Shown here: positions 965 through 20,985 of the stretch, piece by piece
Layout of the letters: every line of letters begins with the position of its first letter
Numbering within the stretch: position 1 is the stretch's first letter
Assembly: GCA_015486955.1 (NCBI GenBank)
Contig: WFQR01000184.1
Coordinates: 1 to 34,162 of the forward strand
Direction of reading: 5' to 3'
Source of the DNA: Hippea sp.
GTDB taxonomy: Bacteria; Campylobacterota_A; Desulfurellia; Desulfurellales; Hippeaceae
Length of the DNA stretch: 34,162 nucleotides
The notes under the pieces: generated by a model
Databases searched by the model: none
What the model saw: the letters and a program-made list of their open reading frames with translations, nothing else
Told to the model about the DNA's origin: nothing
Made by a program: the position numbers and the translations under genes

Positions 965-1462
965 CTACCTCCTACCAATCTTCTCGTTTTTTGTTTTGTA
1001 CGCTTCGGTTTTTTGTATCTTTCTCCTTGCGTAATCACCAATACAAATGGCATCTGCTAAATCAGGATCATCAATTTTTTCTTTTGCTATCTCGCTTGCT
1101 ACGAGACAGGAAATTCGCTTTCTTTGATCTCTTTTGGCTTTTATGTTCACGCCGAGCATGATTGTTTGCCAACTTTGGGGAGAAACAACCTCGCATTTAG
1201 TAGCGCCAGCAACACGGGCAAGAGTGAGTATCATCGTTCGGGCAGAGACCAGTTTTATCAGGGTCTTAACGTTGAGGTTGAGGTATTGATCCTCTATAAA
1301 AAACATAAACTCCTTCCCTATAAACTGGCTAAAAAAAGACTGTATGTCAGTGAACCTCGTTTTAACCTTCGTATAACTTTCAAGCCCACTATCGCTAAAC
1401 ACTGCAAACGCACTCGACTTCGTGCTTGGATCACAAGAAATCAAAAACATAACTCTCCCCAC
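965..1462 (-). CDS. RuvC-like Holliday junction resolvase fold protein
   Basis: Acidic motifs in RuvC order: LISCDPSTKSSAFAVF, FFIEDQYL, DDPDLADAICIGDYA. Confidence 0.6.
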   Translation of the reverse strand: MGRVMFLISCDPSTKSSAFAVFSDSGLESYTKVKTRFTDIQSFFSQFIGKEFMFFIEDQYLNLNVKTLIKLVSARTMILTLARVAGATKCEVVSPQSWQTIMLGVNIKAKRDQRKRISCLVASEIAKEKIDDPDLADAICIGDYARRKIQKTEAYKTKNEKIGRR

Positions 1463-1632
1463 AAAACTTTCCCTCTCTACTATATAGGGTCAATTTTTAA
1501 CAAAAATTATGGAAATGGCGTTGGGAAGGGAAATGCAAAGGTTAGTTCCAAATCAGGGAGAGCCAGGTACTACACTATACACAGCTGTGAACCACTACTT
1601 CCTCACGGGAGGAGACTTCTTCTGGTAGGGAG

Positions 1633-2046
1633 TTATGCGTTTGCTATGTTCTCAATTTTTCCAACAGATATGCATTCCACTTTACCGTATCGGAAAGCTT
1701 CCACAACGTCCTTTATTATTTGTCTTTCTCTCTCGGAAAAAAATTTAGTCGGCACCTTGAAAACTTTTTCGTGTGCCCCTTTCTTCAAAGCTGAAACAAA
1801 ATCCACCGTTGTCACAGGGGTATAGCAAGTGGATCCAGAAAAAGTGTATTGGTTGAAGAATATAGGTCTACCAAGCTTCTGAATAGCGAAAGTGTCACAC
1901 ATGTGTACCATCTTGAGGAGTTTCTCCATCGTCAAATCTTGAACACCCGAAAGTCTGCAGAACCTTGCAAAATTTCTCAACTTTCTTGCTATATACGAAG
2001 GATTTGGCACTTGTCTCAAATACATTCGTGACCTCCTTAAAATCAA
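1633..2046 (-). CDS. Panacea (SocA/DUF4065)-like protein, tentative
   Basis: MEKLLKMVHMCDTFAIQKLGRPIFFNQYTFSGSTCYTPVTTVDFVSAL...FSERERQIIKDVVEAF resembles the KLLYfaD...GRpi.gd.Y.a..yGPVp / FSe.E...ld.V layout of Panacea domains. Confidence 0.4.
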   Translation of the reverse strand: MILRRSRMYLRQVPNPSYIARKLRNFARFCRLSGVQDLTMEKLLKMVHMCDTFAIQKLGRPIFFNQYTFSGSTCYTPVTTVDFVSALKKGAHEKVFKVPTKFFSERERQIIKDVVEAFRYGKVECISVGKIENIANA

Positions 2047-2070
2047 AGAGAGGGGTTTCCCCCTCTCTTT

Positions 2071-2352
2071 TTAACTAACTGCTTTTTTAAGCTCGCTACC
2101 AACCTTGAACGCAGGCAACTTCCTTGCGGGAATAGTGATAACTTCGCCAGTTCTTGGGTTTCTTCCTTTTCTTTCACTCCTCTCGCTCAAATAAAACTTA
2201 CCCATGCCTGGAATGTTCACCTCTTCTCCCTTCTTAAGAGCCTCAGAAACTACCTCCCAAAAAGCATCCAGCACCTTCTTTGCTTGCGTTTTTGTTACCC
2301 CAGCTCTCTCCGCCAATGCTCCAATAAGCTCCGTCTTTGTCATACGAACCAC
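2071..2352 (-). CDS. hup: HU-family DNA-binding protein
   Basis: MTKTELIGALAERAGVTKTQAKKVLDAF...GMGKFYLSERSERKGRNPRTGEVITIPARKLPAFKVGSELKKAV is canonical HU. Confidence 0.95.
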   Translation of the reverse strand: MVRMTKTELIGALAERAGVTKTQAKKVLDAFWEVVSEALKKGEEVNIPGMGKFYLSERSERKGRNPRTGEVITIPARKLPAFKVGSELKKAVS

Positions 2353-2367
2353 CTCCTTAAAAAAGTT

Positions 2368-3093
2368 TTATGCTATTATGCCGAAATCGGCGTCTGATAA
2401 TGAGTATGAGTAACTTTCAGGTATACAAACTTTGTCTTTATCAAATACAATCTGAGGTCTAAAAACACCTTCTATAAGACCTATTTTGTCAGCAAAAATC
2501 CTAAAGTAGTCAAAAAAATCTACCATATCGGTATACTCCTTTTCCTCTGGGCTTCCAAAAAACATTTCTCTGTATACTTTCTTTTTAAACTTCTCGAGGT
2601 TATTATCATCCACAACCGCCTTAGGTATATAATAAAAGCTGTTTTCTGAAAGAAGTATCCTCCTTTTTTTACTGAACATAGAATTCAAGATCCCAATTAT
2701 ATAAATTCTTCTTCTATTGAAACTTTCCCCTTCTGGTATATTAAAAAACACCTTGCCAAAAGACTTCCTGCATACATTCTCTCTTACTACAAAATACACC
2801 CCGCTTTTTACAGTAAGATAAGGTGGCATCTCTATGTCCTCTACAAACGCACCGCTTTTGCAAACATTAAGGAGCTTTCTTTTAAAGACCATTATACCGT
2901 TTAAGGCATCAAGAAATACAGTGTTGATGGGCTTTAGCCCCATTTCCCTGCATTTTATATTTTTTAAAATATTTAGCTCTTCGTCATCCATCTTCCTATG
3001 CTTAACCCTTTGTACAAAATCCTCTACCTCACTCTCCTCTACAGGTATAACATCAATTTTAACAACATTACCGAAAAGCCTTATTTCAGGCAT
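2368..3093 (-). CDS. hypothetical protein in conjugation operon
   Basis: 241-aa ORF abutting the traC-like start-side operon; no recognised motif. Confidence 0.6.
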   Translation of the reverse strand: MPEIRLFGNVVKIDVIPVEESEVEDFVQRVKHRKMDDEELNILKNIKCREMGLKPINTVFLDALNGIMVFKRKLLNVCKSGAFVEDIEMPPYLTVKSGVYFVVRENVCRKSFGKVFFNIPEGESFNRRRIYIIGILNSMFSKKRRILLSENSFYYIPKAVVDDNNLEKFKKKVYREMFFGSPEEKEYTDMVDFFDYFRIFADKIGLIEGVFRPQIVFDKDKVCIPESYSYSLSDADFGIIA

Positions 3094-5579
3094 TAGATCT
3101 CACCTCTTTCTCTTGCCTCTATGCACATTTGTACAGCTTTTAATATATCCCCTGTCTGATTGTAATACTTGGTTCTTAAGGCAACCTCTTTAGCATCAGT
3201 CGTGTAAATCCAATAAAGTTCCTTAGGTAAAACGAGCCTTAATATGCCCCTCCCCGTAGACCTCGAAATAACCAAAACTTCTGAATACTTACCTTTAACG
3301 GTTCTCAGCGTGTCTCTGTATATCTCTTTCTCATAATCAGATATAAAGATATCCTTATCCTTAACCATTCTCTCCCACTCTTCTGGTGGTTCCCAGAAAA
3401 TAAACAGATATTCTGAGTTGTTTTTAAGAACTTTTGTAACATCGTTTCTTAAGAGGTCACTAATAGATTGAGTGATAAATACCAAAGAACCATTAAATTT
3501 TCTGTACTCTCTTGCTCCCTGTTCGATAAACTTTAGCACCGCTTGGTTTCCTATAAATCTCCATGCTTCATCCCAGATTACAAGCTTTTTTGTATCTCTA
3601 TCACCCTGATAAATTTCTATGTTAATGAAATAGAATAAGCTAAGCAGTAAAACGTTAGTCAGAACCGTGTCGTCTTTAATAGCTCCAAGCTCAAACACGA
3701 CTAAGTCATTATTTAAATCTATATCACTCTTACCTGACATAAACTTTTCGTACTGTCCGCCCTTACACCAGGGAGAAAGGTTGAAATGAGCGAGTTTTTT
3801 AAACCCATAATCTTTATTTTCATCTGCAATTTTATCTATTTCAGCCTTTACATGATTTATATCCATATCGTTGCCGTATTTTTCATAAGCCCTTCTTATT
3901 GCAACCTGTATCATTCCCCTTTCTGTATCCGTACATCTTTCATTAGGTTTAATCATTGTATCAACTATGTTGATCAAGAAGTCCATTTCTCTATCGAGAT
4001 TTTTAATCTGAGAGAAAGGATTTACCTTTATTGGTTTGCCAAACTCTGGTTTAATAAACTGACCATTAAAAAGCTTAGATATTCCAACGTAAGATTCACC
4101 GACATCGATAACTCTGATCTTTGTGTTGGGAAGTGATCTGTAGTTAAAGATCAAATGGTTAACAAACATCGATTTACCTTGACCCATAGGGCCGACGACA
4201 CATGCGTTCATACCGCCATTTGTATCCCAAAGGTCTACAAATGCCAACTGGCCTCTCCTTGTTATAAGTGGAACCACAGGTGTACCTGACCCTTTCCAAT
4301 CAAATTGAACAGGTGTTAAGTGTGCCGCATTATAGGAAAACATAGAATAAGCACGTGCAACCTGCTGTGTTGTGAGAACTGAATATGTATTAAACGGCAG
4401 TATAGTCATAAAGAAGGGGACTGGAACCATCTCTTCCTGCAAGAACACATTACTAACCATAAGCATATTCTTCAACACTCTCGCTGAATCATTTACACGT
4501 TTTTTGCTTTCATCATACAGGTAAAACATAAGCATTCCTTTCCACAGTACTTGCCCTTTTTCTGTTTCACGGCCGAGAAGCACTGCGTCTTCTTGTCTTT
4601 CTTGCAGTTTTGTGGAAAGTGCAGAAAAGCTCTGCTGTTTAAGAACTGCTTCCGCCTTTTGAAGCAAAACAGACTTTTCTTTATCCGTTGCTTTCCTTGC
4701 CGAAAAAGACACTACAAACCTACAATTTATCTGGTTTCTGTTGATATGATGAATAGAACCGAGCCACTCGTTAGTCTCCGCAGATGTAAACTCCTGTGGA
4801 TACTCCTTTACGGTTAGCACTTTTCCGTACATTTTATCTATCTTAAAAATATTATCGTCTTCATATTGCTCAAGAACTGTATCTCTGTAAACAACTTGTT
4901 TGTTTATATTCTCTCGATCATTGTACTTAAACGTAGCTTCTTTAAGAGCGTGAGATGGATTTACAAAAAGTCTTGATAAAAGCAAATACTCATTAATTGT
5001 AAGGCGATAAGGATTAAACACAGCCTGCTTTAAAGTCGATTCAATGGCGTCTCTAAGCTGAGATATTTCGGAAATTTTCTCATAGTAACGAGTTTCAGAC
5101 ATATTAGAGAGATTAAAAGGTATTTTTATAGTCAGAAAAGCCCAAGCATCTCTTACTGGAATTTTCCAATCTTCGTATATTTCCCCGTGACTTTTATCTC
5201 TGACAAACTTTACGTAAGTATCAACAATATTCGCTATCTCTTTGTTCTCTAAATTTTTTAAAGATCTATATCCGTTCACAAGAGAATCAATAAAATCACC
5301 ACCCCAAAGAACCCATTGAATTATTGAGTTAGGAGGGATTTGAGGATCTTGGTAAATACCATTTTCAAGAAAGTTTAAAGTCTCATACCCCATAGAAGGT
5401 TTAGTGCCTATAATCCACCCAAAACCCAATGTATCATCAGCCATGTAAAAGAACTGTTTTGATTTATCGTATGCAATAGGCAGTACATACTTGCTTAAGT
5501 GCTCATAATCGAAAAACATGGATATATGTTCTTTTTCAAGTGCATCAATGCTTCTTATTTGAAGTAGCTTTTTCAGCAT
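3093..5579 (-). CDS. traC: F-type conjugative transfer ATPase TraC (VirB4 family)
   Basis: Walker A GPMGQGKSMFVNHL, Walker B KKLVIWDEAWRFI, FITQSISDLL; 828 aa; TraW upstream. Confidence 0.9.
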   Translation of the reverse strand: MLKKLLQIRSIDALEKEHISMFFDYEHLSKYVLPIAYDKSKQFFYMADDTLGFGWIIGTKPSMGYETLNFLENGIYQDPQIPPNSIIQWVLWGGDFIDSLVNGYRSLKNLENKEIANIVDTYVKFVRDKSHGEIYEDWKIPVRDAWAFLTIKIPFNLSNMSETRYYEKISEISQLRDAIESTLKQAVFNPYRLTINEYLLLSRLFVNPSHALKEATFKYNDRENINKQVVYRDTVLEQYEDDNIFKIDKMYGKVLTVKEYPQEFTSAETNEWLGSIHHINRNQINCRFVVSFSARKATDKEKSVLLQKAEAVLKQQSFSALSTKLQERQEDAVLLGRETEKGQVLWKGMLMFYLYDESKKRVNDSARVLKNMLMVSNVFLQEEMVPVPFFMTILPFNTYSVLTTQQVARAYSMFSYNAAHLTPVQFDWKGSGTPVVPLITRRGQLAFVDLWDTNGGMNACVVGPMGQGKSMFVNHLIFNYRSLPNTKIRVIDVGESYVGISKLFNGQFIKPEFGKPIKVNPFSQIKNLDREMDFLINIVDTMIKPNERCTDTERGMIQVAIRRAYEKYGNDMDINHVKAEIDKIADENKDYGFKKLAHFNLSPWCKGGQYEKFMSGKSDIDLNNDLVVFELGAIKDDTVLTNVLLLSLFYFINIEIYQGDRDTKKLVIWDEAWRFIGNQAVLKFIEQGAREYRKFNGSLVFITQSISDLLRNDVTKVLKNNSEYLFIFWEPPEEWERMVKDKDIFISDYEKEIYRDTLRTVKGKYSEVLVISRSTGRGILRLVLPKELYWIYTTDAKEVALRTKYYNQTGDILKAVQMCIEARERGEI

Positions 5580-6270
5580 GTTTCCCCCTCTTTTTTATCT
5601 TTGAGATGTCCTTTTTTATTTCTTCAAGTCCTACTACCTTAATATCGACTAAATCGGGGTCAAATTTGTCTTTGCTTACTATGCTGACCGTGTAGCGTAT
5701 GTTTAATCTTTTATCTAAACCTTTAAGGTCAAAGTATATCGGCCTTTTCATTTTCTTAGCCATATTAATAAGATCTTGTGCATCACCGCTGACACTCAAA
5801 AGCATCACTTCATAGTTATCCTTGTACTTTTTTTCAACCCATTCTCTTTCAAGCGGATTTTTGATATCAAAAACCACAAGCGTTGGCATGTATGGAATGT
5901 AACGCATAACATGGAAAGTGAACCCTTTAGGGTAAAGTATCCCTATTACTTTGCCGTTCTTATCAACTCTTGGAATGTCAAATGGTAAAGTGTATACAAC
6001 GTCGTATTTATACGAAAAGCTCTTTTTGGAAGGGGGCAGGTACTCAACTCTCGGTGAAACATAGTGAAGTGTTTTGTATTTAAGTTTTTCTCTAAGCTGT
6101 GAGAGATAGGCTTTATTGTGCATAAGCTTTTCCGCTTTAGCATGAGCTTCTACCAACAAATCTGGCTCCGCTATTGGATATGTCTTACCGCAGATCTCAG
6201 CAGATATGGATGAACCTGCTACACTTATAGCAATCACCGCTGCCAAAGCAGCACTAACTATTTTCTTCAT
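5545..6270 (-). CDS. traW: F-type conjugation assembly protein TraW-like
   Basis: Signal peptide, ICGKTYPIAEPDLLVEA N-terminal motif, position next to TraC/TrbI-like genes; 35-bp overlap with traC. Confidence 0.75.
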   Translation of the reverse strand: MKKIVSAALAAVIAISVAGSSISAEICGKTYPIAEPDLLVEAHAKAEKLMHNKAYLSQLREKLKYKTLHYVSPRVEYLPPSKKSFSYKYDVVYTLPFDIPRVDKNGKVIGILYPKGFTFHVMRYIPYMPTLVVFDIKNPLEREWVEKKYKDNYEVMLLSVSGDAQDLINMAKKMKRPIYFDLKGLDKRLNIRYTVSIVSKDKFDPDLVDIKVVGLEEIKKDISKIKKRGKHAEKATSNKKH

Positions 6271-6435: not shown

Positions 6436-6924
6436 TTAAAAAATTTTGTAAGCCTTACCTTCTATGCCACTACATACAAGCCCGTAGTATCTTGAGTCGT
6501 AAGAATTGTAGGCTGTTCCCAAAGCAAAATAGCAACCTACTGGTATTACACCATTGTAAATTACATGGTTTGGGCAGTTTGGGAATTCCAACGTTTTCTT
6601 GCAAGCGTATCCCAAGAGTCTACCATTGCAGTAATACGCAGTGCCTTTCTTTGTAACTTTGGTCGTGAGGTATTCACCAGAGGAACAACCCACAATCTTG
6701 ATAAACTCAAAACCCTTCGGATACAACTTACTTCCCTTAAAGTAAAAAGCAAAGTAGTCACCGTCATGCAGGTTTTTATTCTTAGTAACAAAGAAGTATG
6801 TCCCTTTTATGCAGTCCATTGTATTAACACCAAAGTAACCAACGCCGTAAGATATGAGCCTTAAAATTACAGATACAGCAACTATAACTACGCCACTTAC
6901 AATGAGCTTCTTATTCTTGCTCAC
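6436..6924 (-). CDS. traF: TraF-like S26 signal peptidase family protein
   Basis: Single TM then NTMDCIKGTYFF, GFEFIKIVGCSSGE, YNSYDSRYYG; layout of conjugative TraF/LepB-like S26 peptidases. Confidence 0.75.
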   Translation of the reverse strand: MSKNKKLIVSGVVIVAVSVILRLISYGVGYFGVNTMDCIKGTYFFVTKNKNLHDGDYFAFYFKGSKLYPKGFEFIKIVGCSSGEYLTTKVTKKGTAYYCNGRLLGYACKKTLEFPNCPNHVIYNGVIPVGCYFALGTAYNSYDSRYYGLVCSGIEGKAYKIF

Positions 6925-7447
6925 TGTTGGTTCTATCCTTCAGTGTTTTTTCAAAACCTTTAGTTATATCTTTCACGTAAGGGCTCTTTCCTATAGTAGC
7001 CCCGCCAACAAACACTATGCCTTTTTTAGAAAAACTATTCACATACTCTCCAACTGCCGTCATGTAACTGTTGATTTCTTTTTTTATTTCTTTTGAAGAC
7101 TTCTTTGAGTGCATAATATTGTTTTTCATTTCATCAACAACTCTCGCAAGATTAAAGGAGTAAAATCGAACTGGATGCCTTACGTATGAGACATAAATAG
7201 CAAGAACTATGCTTGCTGTTATTAAACCTGTGACAAAAGAGATCAGGAAAGTCATTAGTAAATTCTGCTTAGCTGAAAGTTTACTATAATCGTAAGTATT
7301 CCAACCATCTGTTTTTTTTGTTTCCCAAGTATCGCCATCCTTTTCCTTATGTTGCGTTTCTTGTTTTTTATCATCTAAATTCTCTCTTTCCTGTTGGTGC
7401 TGAGTTTCTTTTTCTTTGTCCTGTTCATTCCTATCCTTATCCACCAT
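6911..7447 (-). CDS. trbI: TrbI-like F-type conjugation protein
   Basis: Charged N-terminus, single TM, VRFYSFNLARVVDEMKNNI...GIVFVGGATIGKSPYVKDITKGFEKTL resembles F TrbI layout; located between S26 peptidase and TrxL gene. Confidence 0.55.
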   Translation of the reverse strand: MVDKDRNEQDKEKETQHQQERENLDDKKQETQHKEKDGDTWETKKTDGWNTYDYSKLSAKQNLLMTFLISFVTGLITASIVLAIYVSYVRHPVRFYSFNLARVVDEMKNNIMHSKKSSKEIKKEINSYMTAVGEYVNSFSKKGIVFVGGATIGKSPYVKDITKGFEKTLKDRTNSEQE

Positions 7448-7449
7448 GT

Positions 7450-7836
7450 CTACCTCCCTTCGTTTTTATTTTTTGCATATTTTCTTGCCTGATCTATATA
7501 ACTAAGAAGAACGTTTAACGTATTTGCCACAGTATCCTGTACCAATGACACGTTTTCTTGGTCTAAATCCATCTTGGCTAACTTTTCACCATTCACATAA
7601 AAAAGAATGGAAGGTACATCAGCAAAATTTTTCCTATCTGCATCATTAACAGTAAACACACCAACTCGCTTTTCCATCACCTCCTTATTCCTGCTTATTA
7701 GTTTTTCTAAAGCACTGTAGACCTGCGGACAGATGCTCTTATCCTTATTACACAGAATCGCAATTTTCACATCTTTGGCAGATAGCCATAAAGCCTTCTC
7801 AAGTTCTGATAAATCCCTTGCTTTTACTTCTATCAC
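7450..7836 (-). CDS. thioredoxin-like fold protein
   Basis: DVKIAILCNKDKSICPQVYSALEKLI...VFTVNDADRKNFADVPSILFYVNGEKLAKM: beta-alpha-beta with cis-Pro VPS. Confidence 0.5.
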   Translation of the reverse strand: MIEVKARDLSELEKALWLSAKDVKIAILCNKDKSICPQVYSALEKLISRNKEVMEKRVGVFTVNDADRKNFADVPSILFYVNGEKLAKMDLDQENVSLVQDTVANTLNVLLSYIDQARKYAKNKNEGR

Positions 7837-12513: not shown

Positions 12514-13878
12514 ATGGCTGAAATAAAAAACATAAACGGGTACCATACAAAAAAAGGTACCCGCCCCCTCAAAAACTATATTAACAAAAACAATCTCGGC
12601 ATTCAACCATATTCTTGGGAAAGTGAAGTTGCTACACTCTGTTGCATCCTTTTAGACAACGAACTCATCTCTTACTGTCTTACAGAAGACTTGACGCCAG
12701 AAGATTTCTATGACAAAAGAAATGCTCTGTTATACTCCACAATGCTCAAACTATACCAAAATGGCGATAGTATAGATTTTATGTCTCTCTCATCCGAACT
12801 TTCTGATCAGCAGGATAAGATACCCATCCAGTATTTAATGTCCGTATCCGAGTACTTACCAGCCCCAATGAATATAAAATACTTTGTCAAAAGAATTAAG
12901 AATTTCTCAAAGATACGAAAATATCTAAATATAGCCAAGCAAATAGAAATACTAAGCTATGAAACCGAAGATCCTGAAGAGATAGAAAAAGCAATATCAG
13001 ACCTTTTACTTAAAGAAAACACCTCTTCACAGTTCTATAAAACCGTAAGCTCAATCTTAAACAGAGAGATAAAAACATACGAAATTTTCAGTCACGGAGC
13101 AAAAATCCAGCAGAGAGCAATATGGGGCATCTTAGGTGCAACAAGTGCTGGAAAAACAGAATTTTCCCTTGATTTAACGCTTGCCTTTATATCGCAGAAT
13201 GTAGAAAACGTGGTGCTGTTTTGTGAATACGAGGGAACAGAACACGACCTCATCTTAAGGATACAAAGAAAAGCCGAACACGAAAGCAGGTGGAATACTG
13301 AAAGGGTTTTTATTGCTATGAAGCCAAGTTTTTTAGAAATCATTGACTTTGTTAGAAGATATAAAGAGAAAAATATACTCATCATCGTTGACTATCTGCA
13401 ACGCTTTGCAAGAAAACTTCAGGCTGAAGACCAAAGACCAACAGACAATCTAAGGCTGTATGTGAATAATATATACGGCTTTTTCGATAATCTGAGAAAC
13501 GAGCATCCGAATATTTCAGTATGCCTGCTTATGTCCATGTCAAAAAGCGGAATAAACGAAATATCAAGACAGAAAAAAGCAGATAAGGTTGATCTGCTAA
13601 ATTCGATCAAGGAGTCTGGAGATGTTCAATACGATCTTGATTACTCCTATGCTATGCTGTTCAGCGATGATAATGACGAGAATGAAAGAGTCTTGAGTTT
13701 AAGCAGGTTCACCCAGGAAGGAAAAGCAAAGAAATACATGCATCTATACCCAATCAAAGAGGCAAGAATTGGTGAACCCTTAAAAGAGGCTGTTTATGCA
13801 TTCTCAGCAGAAAGGTACTCTTATGAGCTCTTAAGAGAAATCAGTAATACTACTGACGAGGTGGATAACGGTCTCTAA
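12514..13878 (+). CDS. DnaB-like replicative helicase
   Basis: N-terminal SWESEVATLCCILLDNELI...LTPEDFYDKRNALLYSTMLKLYQNGDSIDFMSL; Walker A GILGATSAGKTEFSLDL; Walker B ILIIVDYLQ. Confidence 0.9.
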   Translation: MAEIKNINGYHTKKGTRPLKNYINKNNLGIQPYSWESEVATLCCILLDNELISYCLTEDLTPEDFYDKRNALLYSTMLKLYQNGDSIDFMSLSSELSDQQDKIPIQYLMSVSEYLPAPMNIKYFVKRIKNFSKIRKYLNIAKQIEILSYETEDPEEIEKAISDLLLKENTSSQFYKTVSSILNREIKTYEIFSHGAKIQQRAIWGILGATSAGKTEFSLDLTLAFISQNVENVVLFCEYEGTEHDLILRIQRKAEHESRWNTERVFIAMKPSFLEIIDFVRRYKEKNILIIVDYLQRFARKLQAEDQRPTDNLRLYVNNIYGFFDNLRNEHPNISVCLLMSMSKSGINEISRQKKADKVDLLNSIKESGDVQYDLDYSYAMLFSDDNDENERVLSLSRFTQEGKAKKYMHLYPIKEARIGEPLKEAVYAFSAERYSYELLREISNTTDEVDNGL

Positions 13879-13895: not shown

Positions 13896-14999
13896 TTGAT
13901 GATGGCAAAGAAAGACAAAGAGCAGAAAAAGAAAAAAGAACAGGACAAGCATCCTGCTGAGCCTGTGGAGATTACAAGACACGAGGAAAAATTATTCAGC
14001 TACACATTCAGAAAAACTGGCAAACCAATCCTTTCGGAAACAATGATCGAGGACGACAAATTTCTCTGGTCCATCAAGGCAAAAACTCAGCTGACCCAGC
14101 TCCACAACTTGTTTATTGATGCTATGATGACGCTGGGTTTTAAAAACAATGCATTCGCTACAACATACGACACAGTCGTAGCGAAGCTCACTAACACACC
14201 TGCCTTTGTCTGTGTTGTCACATTGAAAGAATTAAAAAATTACCTATCCAAAAAAATGTCTATGCACTCATTCCAAGAAATTCAGAGAATAAGTGAGGAA
14301 CTCACCAAAAGCTGTCCTATTGAACTGACTTTGATTGATAAATACACACGAGAGGTGAAGCTGAAAAGCTCCACCCAACTCGTTTTAGAATGTGGCTACT
14401 TGTCGGACGACTTAGAAGTCGTCAAAGCCACATTACCAGAAAGTGAGAGAATTTTCAAGTTTGTTCAAGAAAACAAAGTTGATCTGGAAAAAATCAACAA
14501 AGTGGCTAAACCAAAGGAAACTGGTAATCTATTCATAATGCTTTCACCAGTCTACGTTGCAATGTTATTCGCTTCAAAAGTTAGAGTGAACTACTCAACA
14601 GTTATTCTTGAGAAATTTAAATCCATACCAGATGGGTTATTACTTTCGGTGATAAAGTACATAACATCCCAAAAAGCTCCTTACAGCGTAAAGGTTGATA
14701 CGGTGGTGGAGAAGATTATACAAGGCGAAATAGATGACTCCTCAACTTCAAGCATAATCACTCAATTTAGAAAAAAACTCGCATCAGGTAAATTTAACAA
14801 ATACTTAAGTAAATTTAAAATTGCCTATGATAGGGAAAAAGACATGTTCATCTATCCAGAGAATATAAAAGGGATTGGATTTTCAGAGCCTTTTAAAGAC
14901 AGAAAGAAAAAACTCTTAAAAGCAATTACAAAAGGAGTAGAAAGTCACCTACCCCGCCCTAAAGGGCAGAGCTTGAGCTCTGTGGGTGACAAGCCTTAG
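13896..14999 (+). CDS. plasmid replication initiator-like protein (Rep); C-terminus encoded by inserted IscB element
   Basis: 367 aa, Lys-rich, between helicase gene and iteron origin; last 17 aa HLPRPKGQSLSSVGDKP fall in the omegaRNA-like region. Confidence 0.5.
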   Translation: MMMAKKDKEQKKKKEQDKHPAEPVEITRHEEKLFSYTFRKTGKPILSETMIEDDKFLWSIKAKTQLTQLHNLFIDAMMTLGFKNNAFATTYDTVVAKLTNTPAFVCVVTLKELKNYLSKKMSMHSFQEIQRISEELTKSCPIELTLIDKYTREVKLKSSTQLVLECGYLSDDLEVVKATLPESERIFKFVQENKVDLEKINKVAKPKETGNLFIMLSPVYVAMLFASKVRVNYSTVILEKFKSIPDGLLLSVIKYITSQKAPYSVKVDTVVEKIIQGEIDDSSTSSIITQFRKKLASGKFNKYLSKFKIAYDREKDMFIYPENIKGIGFSEPFKDRKKKLLKAITKGVESHLPRPKGQSLSSVGDKP

Positions 15000-15190
15000 C
15001 CCTTCAAAGGGCTACGTTAAGCGGGTCATGACACCCTGGGGTGTTCCGCAAGCTCCAGGCTCTGTCGCTGACGGTTAAACAGCCCTGTCGGGGTAGGGGC
15101 AGTGCCGTCGGCATGACAAGCCCGCTTAACATTGGCGATGCGGCTCTAACCCGCCTTCGGGCGGAGAAGACCCTTTTATGTTAGGGGAGG
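14944..15190 (+). ncRNA. HEARO / omegaRNA associated with IscB
   Basis: Directly 5' of iscB; nested stems: GTCACC 14944-14949 with GGTGAC 14985-14990; GCCCTTCAAAGGGC 14999-15012; GTTAAGCGGG 15016-15025 with CCCGCTTAAC 15121-15130 (plus TCATG/CATGA); ACACCCTGGGGTGT 15031-15044; CCGCCTTCGGGCGG 15151-15164. Confidence 0.85.
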
Positions 15191-15197
15191 TGAAAAA

Positions 15198-16424
15198 GTG
15201 GTAGCGTATGTGTTGAACAAACACGGTAAACCTTTAATGCCGTGCCACCCAGCAAAGGCACGCATACTGTTAAAGCAGGGCAAGGCAAAGGTGGTGCAGA
15301 GAACACCCTTTACTATCCAACTGCTATACGGTAGCTCTGGCTACAAGCAGCCCATCACTCTCGGCGTTGACAGTGGCTATAAACACATAGGCTTATCCGC
15401 CGTATCAGGCAAGAGAGAGCTGTACGCTTCAGAGATTGAGTTAAGGGACGATATTTCCAAGCTTCTCACAGAACGCAGAGAATACCGCAGAAACAGAAGA
15501 TACCGCAAGACAAGGTATAGAAAGCCACGCTTTCTCAATAGACGTAGGCCCGAAGGGTGGCTTGCACCATCTATACAGCACAAATTAGACAGCCATATTA
15601 AGGCAGTTAGCCAGGTGGCAAAGATTTTACCCATTTCAAAGGTTGTGGTAGAGGTTGCTTCTTTTGACATACAGAAGATCAAAAACCCCGATATAAGCGG
15701 GGAAGATTACCAAAACGGTGAACAGAAAGGCTTTTGGAATGTGAGGGAGTATGTGTTGTTTAGAGATGATCACACATGTCAAATATGCAAAGGCAAATCC
15801 AAAGATACAGTTTTGGAAGTTCACCACATAACACCGAGAAGCAAAGGTGGCACAGACAGACCCGACAACCTAATAACCTTATGCCACACCTGCCACGAAA
15901 AGCTGCATAAAGGCGAAATAAAAGCCGTATTAAAGCCTAAAAACAACGGCTTTAAACCTGAATCCTTTATGTCCACTATTAGGTGGAAGGTGGTAGACAG
16001 GCTAAGAGAACTCGGCTACAGCGTGTCTCACACTTACGGCTATTTGACTAAAAACAAAAGAACAGGCTTAGATCTACCTAAGACACATATCAACGATGCT
16101 TTTGTTATAGCTGGTGGGACTAACCAAGAAAGACTGGATAAATACTTCTTTATTAAGCAGGTTAGAAAGTGCAACAGAAAGCTCTACAAAGGGGCAAGAA
16201 GCCATATCAAGAACACAGCGGAGAGGTTTGTTATGGGCTTTCAGAGATTTGATAAGGTGCTTTGGAAAGGGACTGAGTGTTTTGTTTTTAGCAGGAGGAA
16301 AAGAGGATACTTCGATCTAAGAAAACTTGACGGAACTAAAGTTAACTCTTCGGCTAACGCAAAAAAACTGAAACTCTTAGAGAGTGCAAGGACGTTCCTT
16401 GTGGAGCTGAGAAATGTTGCCTAA
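15198..16424 (+). CDS. iscB: IscB RNA-guided nuclease (RuvC + HNH)
   Basis: PLMP motif GKPLMP; RuvC-I LGVDSGYKHIG; Arg-rich bridge RREYRRNRRYRKTRYRKPRFLNRRR; RuvC-II VVVEVASFDIQ; HNH CQICKGKSKDTVLEVHHITPRSKGGTDRPDNLITLCHTCHEKLH; RuvC-III KTHINDAFVIAGG. Confidence 0.95.
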   Translation: MVAYVLNKHGKPLMPCHPAKARILLKQGKAKVVQRTPFTIQLLYGSSGYKQPITLGVDSGYKHIGLSAVSGKRELYASEIELRDDISKLLTERREYRRNRRYRKTRYRKPRFLNRRRPEGWLAPSIQHKLDSHIKAVSQVAKILPISKVVVEVASFDIQKIKNPDISGEDYQNGEQKGFWNVREYVLFRDDHTCQICKGKSKDTVLEVHHITPRSKGGTDRPDNLITLCHTCHEKLHKGEIKAVLKPKNNGFKPESFMSTIRWKVVDRLRELGYSVSHTYGYLTKNKRTGLDLPKTHINDAFVIAGGTNQERLDKYFFIKQVRKCNRKLYKGARSHIKNTAERFVMGFQRFDKVLWKGTECFVFSRRKRGYFDLRKLDGTKVNSSANAKKLKLLESARTFLVELRNVA

Positions 16425-16501
16425 AACCAAGAAGAAAGGAGGTAAGTAGGCACTCTTCTCACCGCCCTGAAGGGCGGAGTCCCCGAGCGCTGAAAAGGAG
16501 G

Positions 16502-17185
16502 ATGGCGAGGATAAAAAGAAATGAGATAAAAGTTTTCTTGGCTGAAAGCAATAAAAATACTCAGCTGTTGGTATTCTCCTTTAAAAGAGACAAATGGATA
16601 AAGACAGAAATATCTACTTGCGTAGACAACGATGCACAGCGTGTAACCGTAAGATTTAATATAAGGCCGTTTGATGATGAGGAATGTCTCTGTAAAATAC
16701 TTGCCTGCTACAAACTATCATTCTCTCTTGAAACTCTAAGAATTGAAAATAAAACCTCTTATGTAGAGAGAATAAGAGAATGGTTCGACAAAATAACCAT
16801 AGACTTCCCAAACGACAAGGAATGCATCATTGAAATGGGAACAGTCACTCCAGCTCCAGTAAGGCTGAAAACAGCTGTGATGTTTGTTGTAGAGGCTGTA
16901 ACCGCATCTCTGCTCACTGGATTAGCTGAAAGAAAAAAAATACAGAACATAGACAAAAGGTTTAACAAGTGGATCTCAGAGACATTTTCTAACGGTTTCT
17001 CCATACAAACCACTTGGGATAAGAAGAAAAGAAAAGAAAAACAGAAAGAACAAGAAGATCAGCAAGCTAACCAAGAAAAAGAGATTGAGCAAGAAGATCA
17101 AATTGACCAAGTAAAACCAACTAACCAAACAAGAAATAATGCTCCCGATCCCATTCCGCAAGACATTTTCCTTTTTGAGGGTTAA
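16502..17185 (+). CDS. hypothetical protein with charged C-terminal tail, origin-proximal
   Basis: 227-aa ORF ending just before the iterons; C-term KKKRKEKQKEQEDQQANQEKEIEQEDQ. Start uncertain (AGGAGG abuts ATG). Confidence 0.55.
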   Translation: MARIKRNEIKVFLAESNKNTQLLVFSFKRDKWIKTEISTCVDNDAQRVTVRFNIRPFDDEECLCKILACYKLSFSLETLRIENKTSYVERIREWFDKITIDFPNDKECIIEMGTVTPAPVRLKTAVMFVVEAVTASLLTGLAERKKIQNIDKRFNKWISETFSNGFSIQTTWDKKKRKEKQKEQEDQQANQEKEIEQEDQIDQVKPTNQTRNNAPDPIPQDIFLFEG

Positions 17186-17267
17186 CACCCTCTTTTTTTT
17201 ACCACAACAACAGTAACTTTCTACACCTATTATTTTGTTATACTTTCCATTTTTTCACAAAATTATT

Positions 17268-17529
17268 GGAAGGTAAAGTTAAAGTTGATGAAAGGATACC
17301 TTAAAGTCGATGGAAGGTAAAATTCATTTTTCTTTTTAATTCAAAAACCCCAGAAGGTAAAGTTAAAGTCGACGGAAGGTAAAGTTAAAGTCGACGGAAG
17401 GTAACGAATTTTTAATTTTCCTATTTGAGATATTGGCGTAATAACAACATTTTCTCAAAATAATTCAAAAACCCCAGAAGGTAAAGTTAAAGTCGACGGA
17501 AGGTAAAGTTAAAGTCGACGGAAGGTAAC
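17268..17529 (+). repeat. 22-bp iteron array (candidate oriV)
   Basis: Unit RGAAGGTAAAGTTAAAGTCGAC at 17268 (variant), 17352, 17374, 17476, 17498 plus partial units; exact 68-bp direct repeat 17338-17405 = 17462-17529. Confidence 0.9.
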
Positions 17530-17560
17530 CCAAAAACCCCGATTTTCGACCCTTTTTTGC

Positions 17561-17615
17561 AGAATAGTAATATAGAATAGTGACTATTCTGTTACAGAAT
17601 AGTATACAGAATAGT
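17561..17615. repeat. AGAATAGT octamer cluster with palindrome
   Basis: AGAATAGT at 17561, 17574, 17596, 17608; inverted ACTATTCT at 17583, forming AGAATAGTGACTATTCT. Confidence 0.8.
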
Positions 17616-17618
17616 CAC

Positions 17619-17668
17619 TATGCAAAAGCGCATTGGCGCCCCTTTAAGGGCGCCTGCGCTTTTGCATA
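17619..17668. repeat. strong origin-proximal hairpin
   Basis: TATGCAAAAGCGCA-TT-GGCGCCC-CTTTAA-GGGCGCC-TGCGCTTTTGCATA: 14 bp + 2-nt bulge + 7 bp stem. Confidence 0.9.
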
Positions 17669-17903: not shown

Positions 17904-17925
17904 GATGCCCGTCGCTACGGGCATC
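17904..17925 (-). terminator. hairpin at end of integrase gene
   Basis: GATGCCCGT-CGCT-ACGGGCATC perfect 9-bp stem overlapping the stop codon; no clear T-tract, so terminator role uncertain. Confidence 0.4.
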
Positions 17926-19036
17926 ACTCCAATTTCTTCACTGCTTCTCTCTTTGTGTCGGGTATTAGATGTGAGTATCTTTCTGTCATGGCGAGCGTTT
18001 TATGTCCCATTAACTCTTTGATTGTATAGATGGGGGTTCCCTGTATGGCAAGCCAGCTTGCAAAGGTGTGGCGCAAGGTGTGAAAAACCACCTTGTCTCT
18101 CGGGTCTGTGATGCCGTCGTTAAAGCCGAGCTTGTTTACAACTCTCTCAAATGTTCTTGAAATTCTTATAATTTTTGATCCATTTTTAGTGAAAAAAACA
18201 AAGGATTCTGGTTTTGTTTTTAAGTTTGGTAATCGTTCTTTTCGCTGAGTGAGTATTTGTTCCACTCCATCTGTCATGTAAGCGACTCTGCTGGTTCTGT
18301 TTTTAGGATCTTTAACGTGTATGAGCTTATTTTGAAAATCTATGTCTTGCCACTTTAGGTTTGCTATTTCACCAAACCTCATACCTGTATAGAGGGATAT
18401 ATAAGCCATTTCATAAACTTGTTGGGAGTGTTTTTTGAGTTCTTCTAAGAGCCTTTTAGCCTCTTCTTTTGTTAGAAACCTCAATCTCCTGTTATCTGCC
18501 TTTTTTACTTTAACGCTTTTAACAGGATTAGTCCCGCTGTAAAATCCCCACTCCGCTGCTTTATTGAACACTTGCCTAACTACAGCTATAGCATACTCAG
18601 CAGTTCTCGGACTTCTACCAGCTTGGAGTATGTTTCTTTTGATTTTTTCAATATCCAAAGGGGAAATGGTAGAAAGAGATTTATTACCAATTACAGGTTT
18701 TATCCAAAGTCTGTAATAGCTTTCCTCACGAGGAAAAGACACTTTCTCTTTTGCATAAGGAACGTATTTTTTCTCGAAAAAGAGATCAAATGGTATTTTC
18801 TTATCAGTTAAAGAGTAAACGCTGTCTATCAGTGCCTGTTTAAGTTTCGTTTCCAGCTGTTTAGCTTGAGGTAGCGTGACTCCTGTAAATTCTTTTCTTA
18901 CTGTCTTGTAGTTGTGGTTGACGTGAATCCTCACAGTCATAACACCTTTAGGTCTCGGAGTATTGCACTTGGGACAGGATTTATGTTTCGATGAATATTC
19001 GTTTTTACATGTTGGGCAAACGATGTATATAGGCAT
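17924..19036 (-). CDS. int: tyrosine recombinase/integrase with N-terminal zinc ribbon
   Basis: TGMRFGEI, HTLRHTFASWL, GHKTLAMTERYSHL catalytic motifs; MPIYIVCPTCKNEYSSKHKSCPKC N-terminus; start reassigned to 19036 because AGGAGG precedes it and the upstream 41 aa are implausible. Confidence 0.92.
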   Translation of the reverse strand: MPIYIVCPTCKNEYSSKHKSCPKCNTPRPKGVMTVRIHVNHNYKTVRKEFTGVTLPQAKQLETKLKQALIDSVYSLTDKKIPFDLFFEKKYVPYAKEKVSFPREESYYRLWIKPVIGNKSLSTISPLDIEKIKRNILQAGRSPRTAEYAIAVVRQVFNKAAEWGFYSGTNPVKSVKVKKADNRRLRFLTKEEAKRLLEELKKHSQQVYEMAYISLYTGMRFGEIANLKWQDIDFQNKLIHVKDPKNRTSRVAYMTDGVEQILTQRKERLPNLKTKPESFVFFTKNGSKIIRISRTFERVVNKLGFNDGITDPRDKVVFHTLRHTFASWLAIQGTPIYTIKELMGHKTLAMTERYSHLIPDTKREAVKKLE

Positions 19037-19211
19037 TTTCTCCTCCTTTCGATGGAGAAATATCGGAGAAAAGAGTATAAAAAAATAGGAAAAAAGCAAG
19101 AAAAAATTGAGATAAAAAAGTAAAAGAACAAAACAGGAAAATGTTGATACGCAAAGCATTTTCAGAGAATTTTCCTATAAAAATAAGGATTAAGGAAAGT
19201 AATAGACAAAA

Positions 19212-19258
19212 GACTGAAAATCCCTGTGTCCGAGGTTCGATTCCTCGTCTCGGCACCA
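19212..19258 (+). other. 3' half of tRNA-Phe(GAA): integration att site
   Basis: GACTGAAAATCCCTGTGTCCGAGGTTCGATTCCTCGTCTCGGCACCA: anticodon loop CTGAAAA, T arm GGTTCGATTCC, CCA end; 5' half (expected to begin GCCGAGA) absent. Confidence 0.85.
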
Positions 19259-20356: not shown

Positions 20357-20695
20357 CTAAATCTCACTCAGTATTCTTTCAATTCTTGTTTTTAACTTAG
20401 GAAGCTCATACTCTATGGTGTTCCATACAAGCTCATGCTTTATACCAAAATAGAAGTGTATAAGCTTATCTCTAAAACTTGCCATCTCTTTCCAGGGTAT
20501 ATCTGTATATTTCTGTCGTATTTCCTCTGGAATATGTTTAGATGCTTCCCCAATGATCTCAAATTTTCTTATAACAGCACTAAAGACCATGTCGTTTTTT
20601 CTGAACTCTTCAAAATCTATATCTTTAACAAATTTTTCAATTGCATCAATAGCTTTTAGAATATCTTTTACATACAACTTGATATCTCTTTTCAT
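20357..20695 (-). CDS. hepT: HepT-like (DUF86) toxin
   Basis: RDKLIHFYFGIKHELVW contains the RX4HXY motif; four-bp overlap with NTase gene. Confidence 0.88.
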   Translation of the reverse strand: MKRDIKLYVKDILKAIDAIEKFVKDIDFEEFRKNDMVFSAVIRKFEIIGEASKHIPEEIRQKYTDIPWKEMASFRDKLIHFYFGIKHELVWNTIEYELPKLKTRIERILSEI

Positions 20696-20985
20696 ATAAA
20701 AATAGCCTCTTTCACTATCCTTTCTCTTAATTCCTCTCTAATGGTATCCTGAGGCACTATATCAACATCGATGCCAAGTTTCTCTTGCAGAAACATAGAT
20801 AATCTCATGTAATCAAAGAGTGTGGCGTCTTTGTGAAATTTCACAAGTATGTCAACATCGCTATCTGATTTCTGTTCTCCCCTTGCAAAAGAACCGAAAA
20901 TCCCCACTACTTCTGCCCTAAAGTTTTGTTTTATATCGTTTTTAAAGTCCTTTAAGATTTTCTCAACTTCTCCGACACTTTTCAT
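20692..20985 (-). CDS. mntA: MntA-like minimal nucleotidyltransferase antitoxin
   Basis: GIFGSFARGEQKSDSDVDILVKF (GSX10DXD). Confidence 0.88.
   Translation of the reverse strand: MKSVGEVEKILKDFKNDIKQNFRAEVVGIFGSFARGEQKSDSDVDILVKFHKDATLFDYMRLSMFLQEKLGIDVDIVPQDTIREELRERIVKEAIFI

What the first reader, a model, noticed from the sequence alone, without database searches (positions are those of the whole stretch)
14944..16490. Apparently intact IscB-omegaRNA locus inside the replication module of an F-type conjugative element
All IscB hallmarks are readable (PLMP, RuvC-I D, RuvC-II E, HNH, RuvC-III HxxDA, Arg-rich bridge), and the 250 nt upstream form a multi-stem structure as in HEARO/omegaRNA. 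No TnpA is present. IscB proteins are RNA-guided nucleases with the guide at the 5' end of the omegaRNA. Here the locus sits between the rep-like gene and the iteron origin of a conjugative element, so the nuclease could act in plasmid competition or homing.
Basis: partly seen in the sequence, partly recalled or inferred. Interest (0 to 1): 0.85.

Follow-up and report, generated by a model that had tools for sequence, protein, structure and literature searches.

The report
RNA-guided nuclease element in mobile DNA
A small mobile element carrying an intact RNA-guided DNA-cutting enzyme (IscB) and its guide RNA has landed exactly at the start of a gene in the replication region of a conjugative element, and its guide spells out the empty landing site, so it probably cuts copies that lack it; this is a well-preserved new case of a known kind.

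Summary
Window 14944-15150 is a full-length HEARO/omegaRNA (RF02033, 155.4 bits, cut-off 83), followed by an intact 408-aa IscB (NCBIfam 413 bits) with all RuvC and HNH residues.

An uninterrupted allele in a related genome fixes the insertion: 14944-16501 (1,558 bp), between the last codons of a rep-like gene and the ATG of the next gene. Leaving it out restores the 23-nt gene overlap and Shine-Dalgarno register of the empty allele. The guide (about 16 nt, 14928-14943) followed by ATGG is therefore the empty site itself; in the occupied allele GTCA stands there instead. Right ends of relatives abut ATGA (36 of 39), in line with known motifs of this family.

The host is an integrative conjugative element at tRNA-Phe with F-type tra genes. 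The insertion has no tnpA; the only one found in the genome belongs to a TnpB-type IS605.

Most likely IscB cuts empty alleles, retaining and spreading the element among sibling replicons. Expression and cutting are inferred, not measured. It is a new member of a known kind. Two leads may be less well known: junctions lie at start codons of open reading frames more often than expected (24 of 39), and several right ends carry a Shine-Dalgarno-like sequence.

The parts
14944..16501 (+). whole IscB/HEARO insertion (ISC-type, IS200/IS605 superfamily), 1,558 bp, without tnpA
   Evidence: left end = HEARO model position 1; right end from the empty allele G014:C87 and from relatives that end just before ATGA/ATGG
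14928..14943 (+). presumed omegaRNA guide (about 16 nt, ACAAAAGGAGTAGAAA): 3' end of the upstream gene and native Shine-Dalgarno region of the downstream gene
   Evidence: directly 5' of HEARO; only exact copy in the window; followed by ATGG when the insertion is left out; the 16-nt length is from general knowledge of IscB
14944..15150 (+). omegaRNA scaffold, HEARO RF02033
   Evidence: 155.4 bits, model 1-211/211; 25 of 40 predicted pairs show two-sided changes in a 13-sequence alignment
15198..16424 (+). iscB, 408 aa, RuvC + HNH RNA-guided nuclease, catalytic residues intact
   Evidence: dN 0.04 against dS 1.0 over codons 1-126 versus the relative in G002
16450..16501 (+). right end of the element: hairpin CCGCCC-TGAA-GGGCGG (16462-16477) inside an outer stem GCACTC/GAGCGC (one mismatch), ending CTGAAAAGGAGG
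   Evidence: sequence; similar solo right end in G002:C136 = L019 1709-1773
16502..16505 (+). ATGG: presumed target-adjacent motif and start codon of the downstream gene
   Evidence: the IsrB relatives use NTGA or NTGG motifs (PMC9581776)
13896..14999 (+). upstream replication-module gene ('rep-like'); its last codons are replaced by omegaRNA-encoded residues SHLPRPKGQSLSSVGDKP
   Evidence: 59% identical homologue uninterrupted in G014:C87; reading without the insertion ends GVENGEDKKK*
16502..17185 (+). downstream gene of the interrupted pair, coding sequence unchanged
   Evidence: 50% identical homologue overlapping gene 1 by 23 nt in G014
12514..13878 (+). DnaB-like helicase of the same module
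   Evidence: PF00772 E 1e-17, phrog_19 E 1e-23
17253..17530 (+). iteron-like direct repeats, 22-nt unit GGTAAAGTTAAAGTCGACGGAA, presumed origin
   Evidence: the repeat finder
17924..19159 (-). tyrosine integrase of the conjugative element
   Evidence: PF00589 E 1e-34, phrog_1 E 1e-71
19212..19258 (+). attachment repeat: 3' part of tRNA-Phe; an intact copy is at G000:C133
3093..6270 (-). F-type transfer genes traC (3093-5579) and traW (5545-6270); a weak trbI-like gene lies at 6911-7447
   Evidence: PF11130 E 2e-35, TIGR02743 E 8e-16 (below its cut-off), PF09677 E 0.002

Best explanation
This is an ISC-type mobile element (IscB plus its omegaRNA, no transposase of its own) that inserted immediately before the ATG of a gene in the replication operon of an integrative conjugative element. 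The omegaRNA begins at the left end, so the last ~16 nt of host sequence before the element become its guide. That guide plus the ATGG after it is the sequence of the empty site. IscB loaded with this RNA is expected to cut any copy of the conjugative element, or sister chromosome, that lacks the insertion. Repair from the occupied copy, or loss of the empty one, then keeps and spreads the element. The occupied site is spared because GTCA replaces ATGG next to the guide. Shown: identity, integrity, ends, guide/empty-site match, purifying selection. Inferred: expression, cleavage, homing, and mobilisation by a TnpA supplied from elsewhere.
For: HEARO and IscB are complete. In the empty allele of G014:C87, gene 1 (1881-2957) and gene 2 (1370-1903) overlap by 23 nt. 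The window allele with 14944-16501 left out gives the same 23-nt overlap and the same AGGAG register, -11 to -7 before ATG. Of 39 relative junctions, 36 read ATGA, 2 ATGG and 1 ACGA. DtIsrB uses NTGA and BbIsrB NTGG (PMC9581776). dN/dS is about 0.04 in the shared 5' part of iscB, and the omegaRNA is 96% identical to that of G002 while synonymous sites of iscB differ at 55%. TnpB is described as retaining IS605 elements and as a gene drive in plasmids (PMC11870625).
Against: No expression or cleavage data. No empty allele of this very site from the same species was found; the empty site is inferred from a 59% identical homologue. The fourth motif base is G where nearly all relatives have A, and DtIsrB rejects G there. 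The element has no tnpA, and the only TnpA found in the 82% complete genome belongs to a TnpB-type IS605. The omegaRNA similarity to G002 may partly reflect recombination, since that locus is a mosaic. Relative junctions were placed by eye at the first ATG-like motif after the right-end hairpin, so their count is partly circular.
Confidence: 0.78

Rival explanations
1. A domesticated IscB: the conjugative element has kept the nuclease as a weapon against competing, element-free relatives (incompatibility or competition), with transposition lost for good.
For: No tnpA in the element; strong purifying selection on iscB; position in the replication module of a transmissible element; plasmid gene drive is documented for TnpB.
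Against: Few HEARO/IscB loci have a tnpA anyway (PMC9755519), and the same cutting also serves plain retention. The G014 allele matches the guide at only 11 of 16 positions (sequences), so cutting of distant relatives is unlikely. The element's ends still look intact.
Confidence: 0.1
2. A passive ISC insertion, intact in sequence but silent in this host.
For: No expression data; the guide depends on read-through from the operon or a promoter inside gene 1; fragments of sister elements in G002:C136 show that copies decay.
Against: dN/dS of about 0.04 over a long divergence and a conserved omegaRNA point to function in the lineage; operon read-through should supply the guide.
Confidence: 0.1
3. 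IscB and its guide regulate the rep operon, because the guide covers the Shine-Dalgarno region of the downstream gene.
For: The guide is that Shine-Dalgarno region, and other relatives also sit at start codons.
Against: The guide has the same sense as the mRNA and cannot pair with it; the catalytic residues are intact, unlike what a binding-only regulator would need.
Confidence: 0.02

Closest known systems
IscB/HEARO systems (OgeuIscB, 7xht; NCBIfam NF040563; Rfam RF02033)
   Same: Same protein domains, same omegaRNA family, guide at the 5' end of the RNA
   Different: 408 aa, shorter than OgeuIscB (496 aa chain); junction motif ATGG, where OgeuIscB and OrufIscB are reported to prefer NWRGNA and NTAAA (PMC13180657)
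IsrB (Desulfovirgula thermocuniculi and others, PMC9581776)
   Same: RuvC core, PLMP, structured omegaRNA and a TAM of the NTGA/NTGG kind
   Different: IsrB lacks the HNH domain and nicks; this protein has an intact HNH
TnpB of IS200/IS605 elements, including the plasmid gene drive of PMC11870625
   Same: RNA-guided cutting of the empty site as retention or drive
   Different: Different nuclease family with its guide at the 3' end of the RNA (general knowledge); the drive was shown for TnpB, not for IscB
Mosaic IscB of G002:C20 (Desulfurellales bacterium, L018/L047)
   Same: omegaRNA 96% identical, N-terminal third nearly identical
   Different: The rest comes from a different IscB lineage (that of G000:C169), and its RuvC-I Asp is Ser

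Membership tests
IscB (HEARO) RNA-guided nuclease | Curated IscB family score above cut-off | tested here: met
   NF040563 413 bits against a cut-off of 175
IscB (HEARO) RNA-guided nuclease | PLMP, Arg-rich bridge, RuvC I-III catalytic residues, HNH | tested here: met
   Alignment with relatives
IscB (HEARO) RNA-guided nuclease | omegaRNA of the HEARO family directly upstream, same strand | tested here: met
   RF02033 full length, 155.4 bits
IscB (HEARO) RNA-guided nuclease | Guide taken from the flank at the omegaRNA 5' end, target motif on the other flank | tested here: met
   Empty-site comparison; position only, guide use not tested
IscB (HEARO) RNA-guided nuclease | RNA-guided DNA cleavage | not testable with these tools
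   Needs biochemistry
IS200/IS605-type (ISC) mobile element | Hairpin-bearing ends, no target duplication, fixed motif at one flank | tested here: met
   Ends and ATGR junctions
IS200/IS605-type (ISC) mobile element | Y1 transposase TnpA in the element | tested here: not met
   None in 14944-16501; one TnpA in the genome, next to a TnpB. L071, L072 and L131 have a TnpA-like stretch 330-380 nt downstream of the iscB match. Hence filed as a non-autonomous element, not a complete ISC transposon
IsrB | No HNH domain | tested here: not met
   HNH present, PF01844 E 2e-13
F-type integrative conjugative element (host of the insertion) | F-type tra genes, integrase, attachment repeat at a tRNA | tested here: met
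   TraC, TraW, integrase, tRNA-Phe repeat; the left end lies off the contig, so completeness is unknown

The most novel reading that the evidence does not exclude
ISC elements of this lineage are adapted to start codons: the motif ATGR is often a gene start, the right end brings a Shine-Dalgarno sequence so that the downstream gene stays translated, and the captured guide is the native ribosome-binding region. In the replication operon of a conjugative element this makes a low-cost RNA-guided drive against element-free siblings.
Probability: 0.25. Interest if true: 0.6.

Novelty: new member of a known kind. Interest (0 to 1): 0.38.

Why it matters
It gives an intact IscB with a natural guide and an inferred natural target in a transmissible replicon, so the retention/drive idea, shown for TnpB in plasmids, can be tested for IscB with its native parts. 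The start-codon preference and the Shine-Dalgarno-bearing right ends, if they hold up, suggest how such elements limit damage to their hosts.

Tried and rejected
A fold of the rep-like protein from its single sequence had mean pLDDT 35 and was not searched further. Pfam, NCBIfam, PHROGs and PDB searches gave no family for it, and the plasmid and viral collections no homologue.

A search for guide + ATGG with up to 3 mismatches in 25 genomes gave 2-3-mismatch hits at about the rate of the reversed-pattern control, and no exact target.

Chance as the source of the HEARO hit was rejected: E is 4e-33, and none of the 14 control genomes rings.

Other right ends, such as 16490 or 16492, were considered. 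Ends that differ by multiples of 3 also restore the gene-1 stop, so the frame alone does not settle it. The end at 16501 is preferred because it puts the Shine-Dalgarno sequence in the register of the empty allele and meets the ATGR junction of the relatives.

A link between TAM-reading residues and ATGG was looked for and not found: the window has SRRKRGY where most relatives have GRRKTGY, but L046 has an Arg in that place with ATGA.

Full report
What is there. The ORF at 15198-16424 is IscB: NCBIfam NF040563 413 bits, Pfam RRXRR and HNH, OgeuIscB and other solved IscB chains. In an alignment with relatives all catalytic and structural motifs are kept. The IscB start codon is preceded by a good Shine-Dalgarno sequence, GGGGAGGTGAAAAA-GTG.

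Where it sits. The window is a whole contig of a 1.67-Mb, 82% complete genome. A genome of the same genus, G002, has a 10,128-bp contig that matches L047, titled 'Desulfurellales bacterium'. The left 19 kb is an integrative conjugative element: traC, traW and a weak trbI match, a ParM-like gene, a CI-like repressor, a DnaB-like helicase, the interrupted gene pair, iteron-like 22-nt repeats and a tyrosine integrase. It ends in the 3' part of tRNA-Phe, whose intact copy is on another contig. The F-type label is therefore supported; 'rep-like' for the interrupted gene rests on gene order only.

Exact ends and guide. G014:C87, from a genome of the same family, carries the gene pair without insertion (gene 1 59% and gene 2 50% identical). 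There the genes overlap by 23 nt. Leaving out 14944-16501 in the window gives a gene 1 ending ...KGVENGEDKKK*, the same 23-nt overlap, and AGGAG at -11 to -7 before the ATG, as in G014. Frame alone would allow other ends in steps of 3; the Shine-Dalgarno register and the relatives favour 16501. In 39 relative junctions the right end abuts ATGA (36), ATGG (L037, L116) or ACGA (L030). These junctions were placed by eye after the conserved right-end hairpin, so the count is partly circular; still, near-identical right ends at different sites diverge at that point (for example L036, L038, L039 and L083). Thus the ~16 nt before the element (ACAAAAGGAGTAGAAA) plus ATGG is the empty site. In the occupied allele the guide is followed by GTCA, which should protect it. 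The motif fits published TAMs of the sister family: NTGA for DtIsrB, NTGG for BbIsrB (PMC9581776).

Is it functional? Between the window and the G002 relative, the first 126 codons of iscB have dN 0.04 and dS 1.0, and the omegaRNA is identical at 199 of 207 positions. In 13 related RNAs, 25 of 40 predicted pairs show changes on both sides that keep the pair. The G002 locus is a mosaic (its 3' part is about 95% identical to the IscB of G000:C169), so part of the 5' similarity may be recombination; the synonymous divergence inside iscB still shows long purifying selection. Nothing here measures expression or cutting.

How it most likely works. IscB binds the omegaRNA read from the operon transcript. 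The captured flank guides it to alleles without the element; a cut there leads to repair from the occupied copy or loss of the empty one. This is the retention/drive logic described for TnpB, including in plasmids (PMC11870625), applied to IscB by inference. The element lacks tnpA. Few HEARO loci have one (PMC9755519), though TnpA-like stretches lie close downstream in L071, L072 and L131. The only TnpA found in the genome accompanies a TnpB, so mobilisation in trans is unproven.

Start codons. Of 39 junctions, 24 open a reading frame of at least 50 codons at the motif, against 28% of all ATGA sites in the first 25 of those loci (binomial P about 1e-5). The loci are related, some share right ends, and the background is crude, so this is a lead and not a proof. 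Several right ends (L024, L027-L029, L031, L032, L113, L132 and the window) end in a GGAG-type sequence close to the ATG. In the held library, searches that joined IscB with ATGA, with Shine-Dalgarno, or with TnpB, transposon, donor and start codon gave no paper on this (titles and abstracts only were read for most hits). The original HEARO description and the main ISC papers are not held; from memory the HEARO description already named ATGA/GTGA as the integration flank. So the motif is known; the Shine-Dalgarno part may not be.

Verdict. A confirmed, well-preserved IscB-omegaRNA element with an inferable natural target in a conjugative element: a new member of a known kind, of moderate interest.

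Noticed in passing
L018 (G002:C20) 1200-2748, minus strand: Mosaic IscB: omegaRNA and N-terminal third like the window, the rest about 95% identical at DNA level to the IscB of G000:C169, and RuvC-I Asp replaced by Ser (GVSSGY), so it may be a nickase.
   Followed up: partly
L019 (G002:C136) 1709-1773 and 2775-2856: Solo remnants of the same element: a right end just before ATGA of an RNase H-like gene, and an 82-nt left end fused to the 3' end of another gene and abutting ATGG.
   Followed up: partly
L096 6266-6631 and about 7690-7740 (G007:C1 near 670-672 kb): A hairpin leader like the one between omegaRNA and iscB (window 15146-15190) stands before a DNA methyltransferase-like gene in another genome, about 1 kb from a TnpA-like gene.
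   Followed up: partly
G000:C169 635-1900, minus strand (L020): Second IscB-HEARO locus of the same genome (49% identical IscB, HEARO 147.9 bits); its right junction appears to read GTTAAA-CTGA, not ATGR.
   Followed up: partly
L024, L027, L028, L029, L031, L032, L113, L132: Right ends of related elements carry a Shine-Dalgarno-like GGAG a few bases before the ATGA, which is often the start codon of the next gene.
   Followed up: partly
window 20357-20985: Possible HepT/MntA type VII toxin-antitoxin pair just right of the att repeat, both below the curated cut-offs.
   Followed up: no
window 17577-17668: Perfect inverted repeats (16 and 14 nt) between the iteron-like repeats and the integrase.
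   Followed up: no
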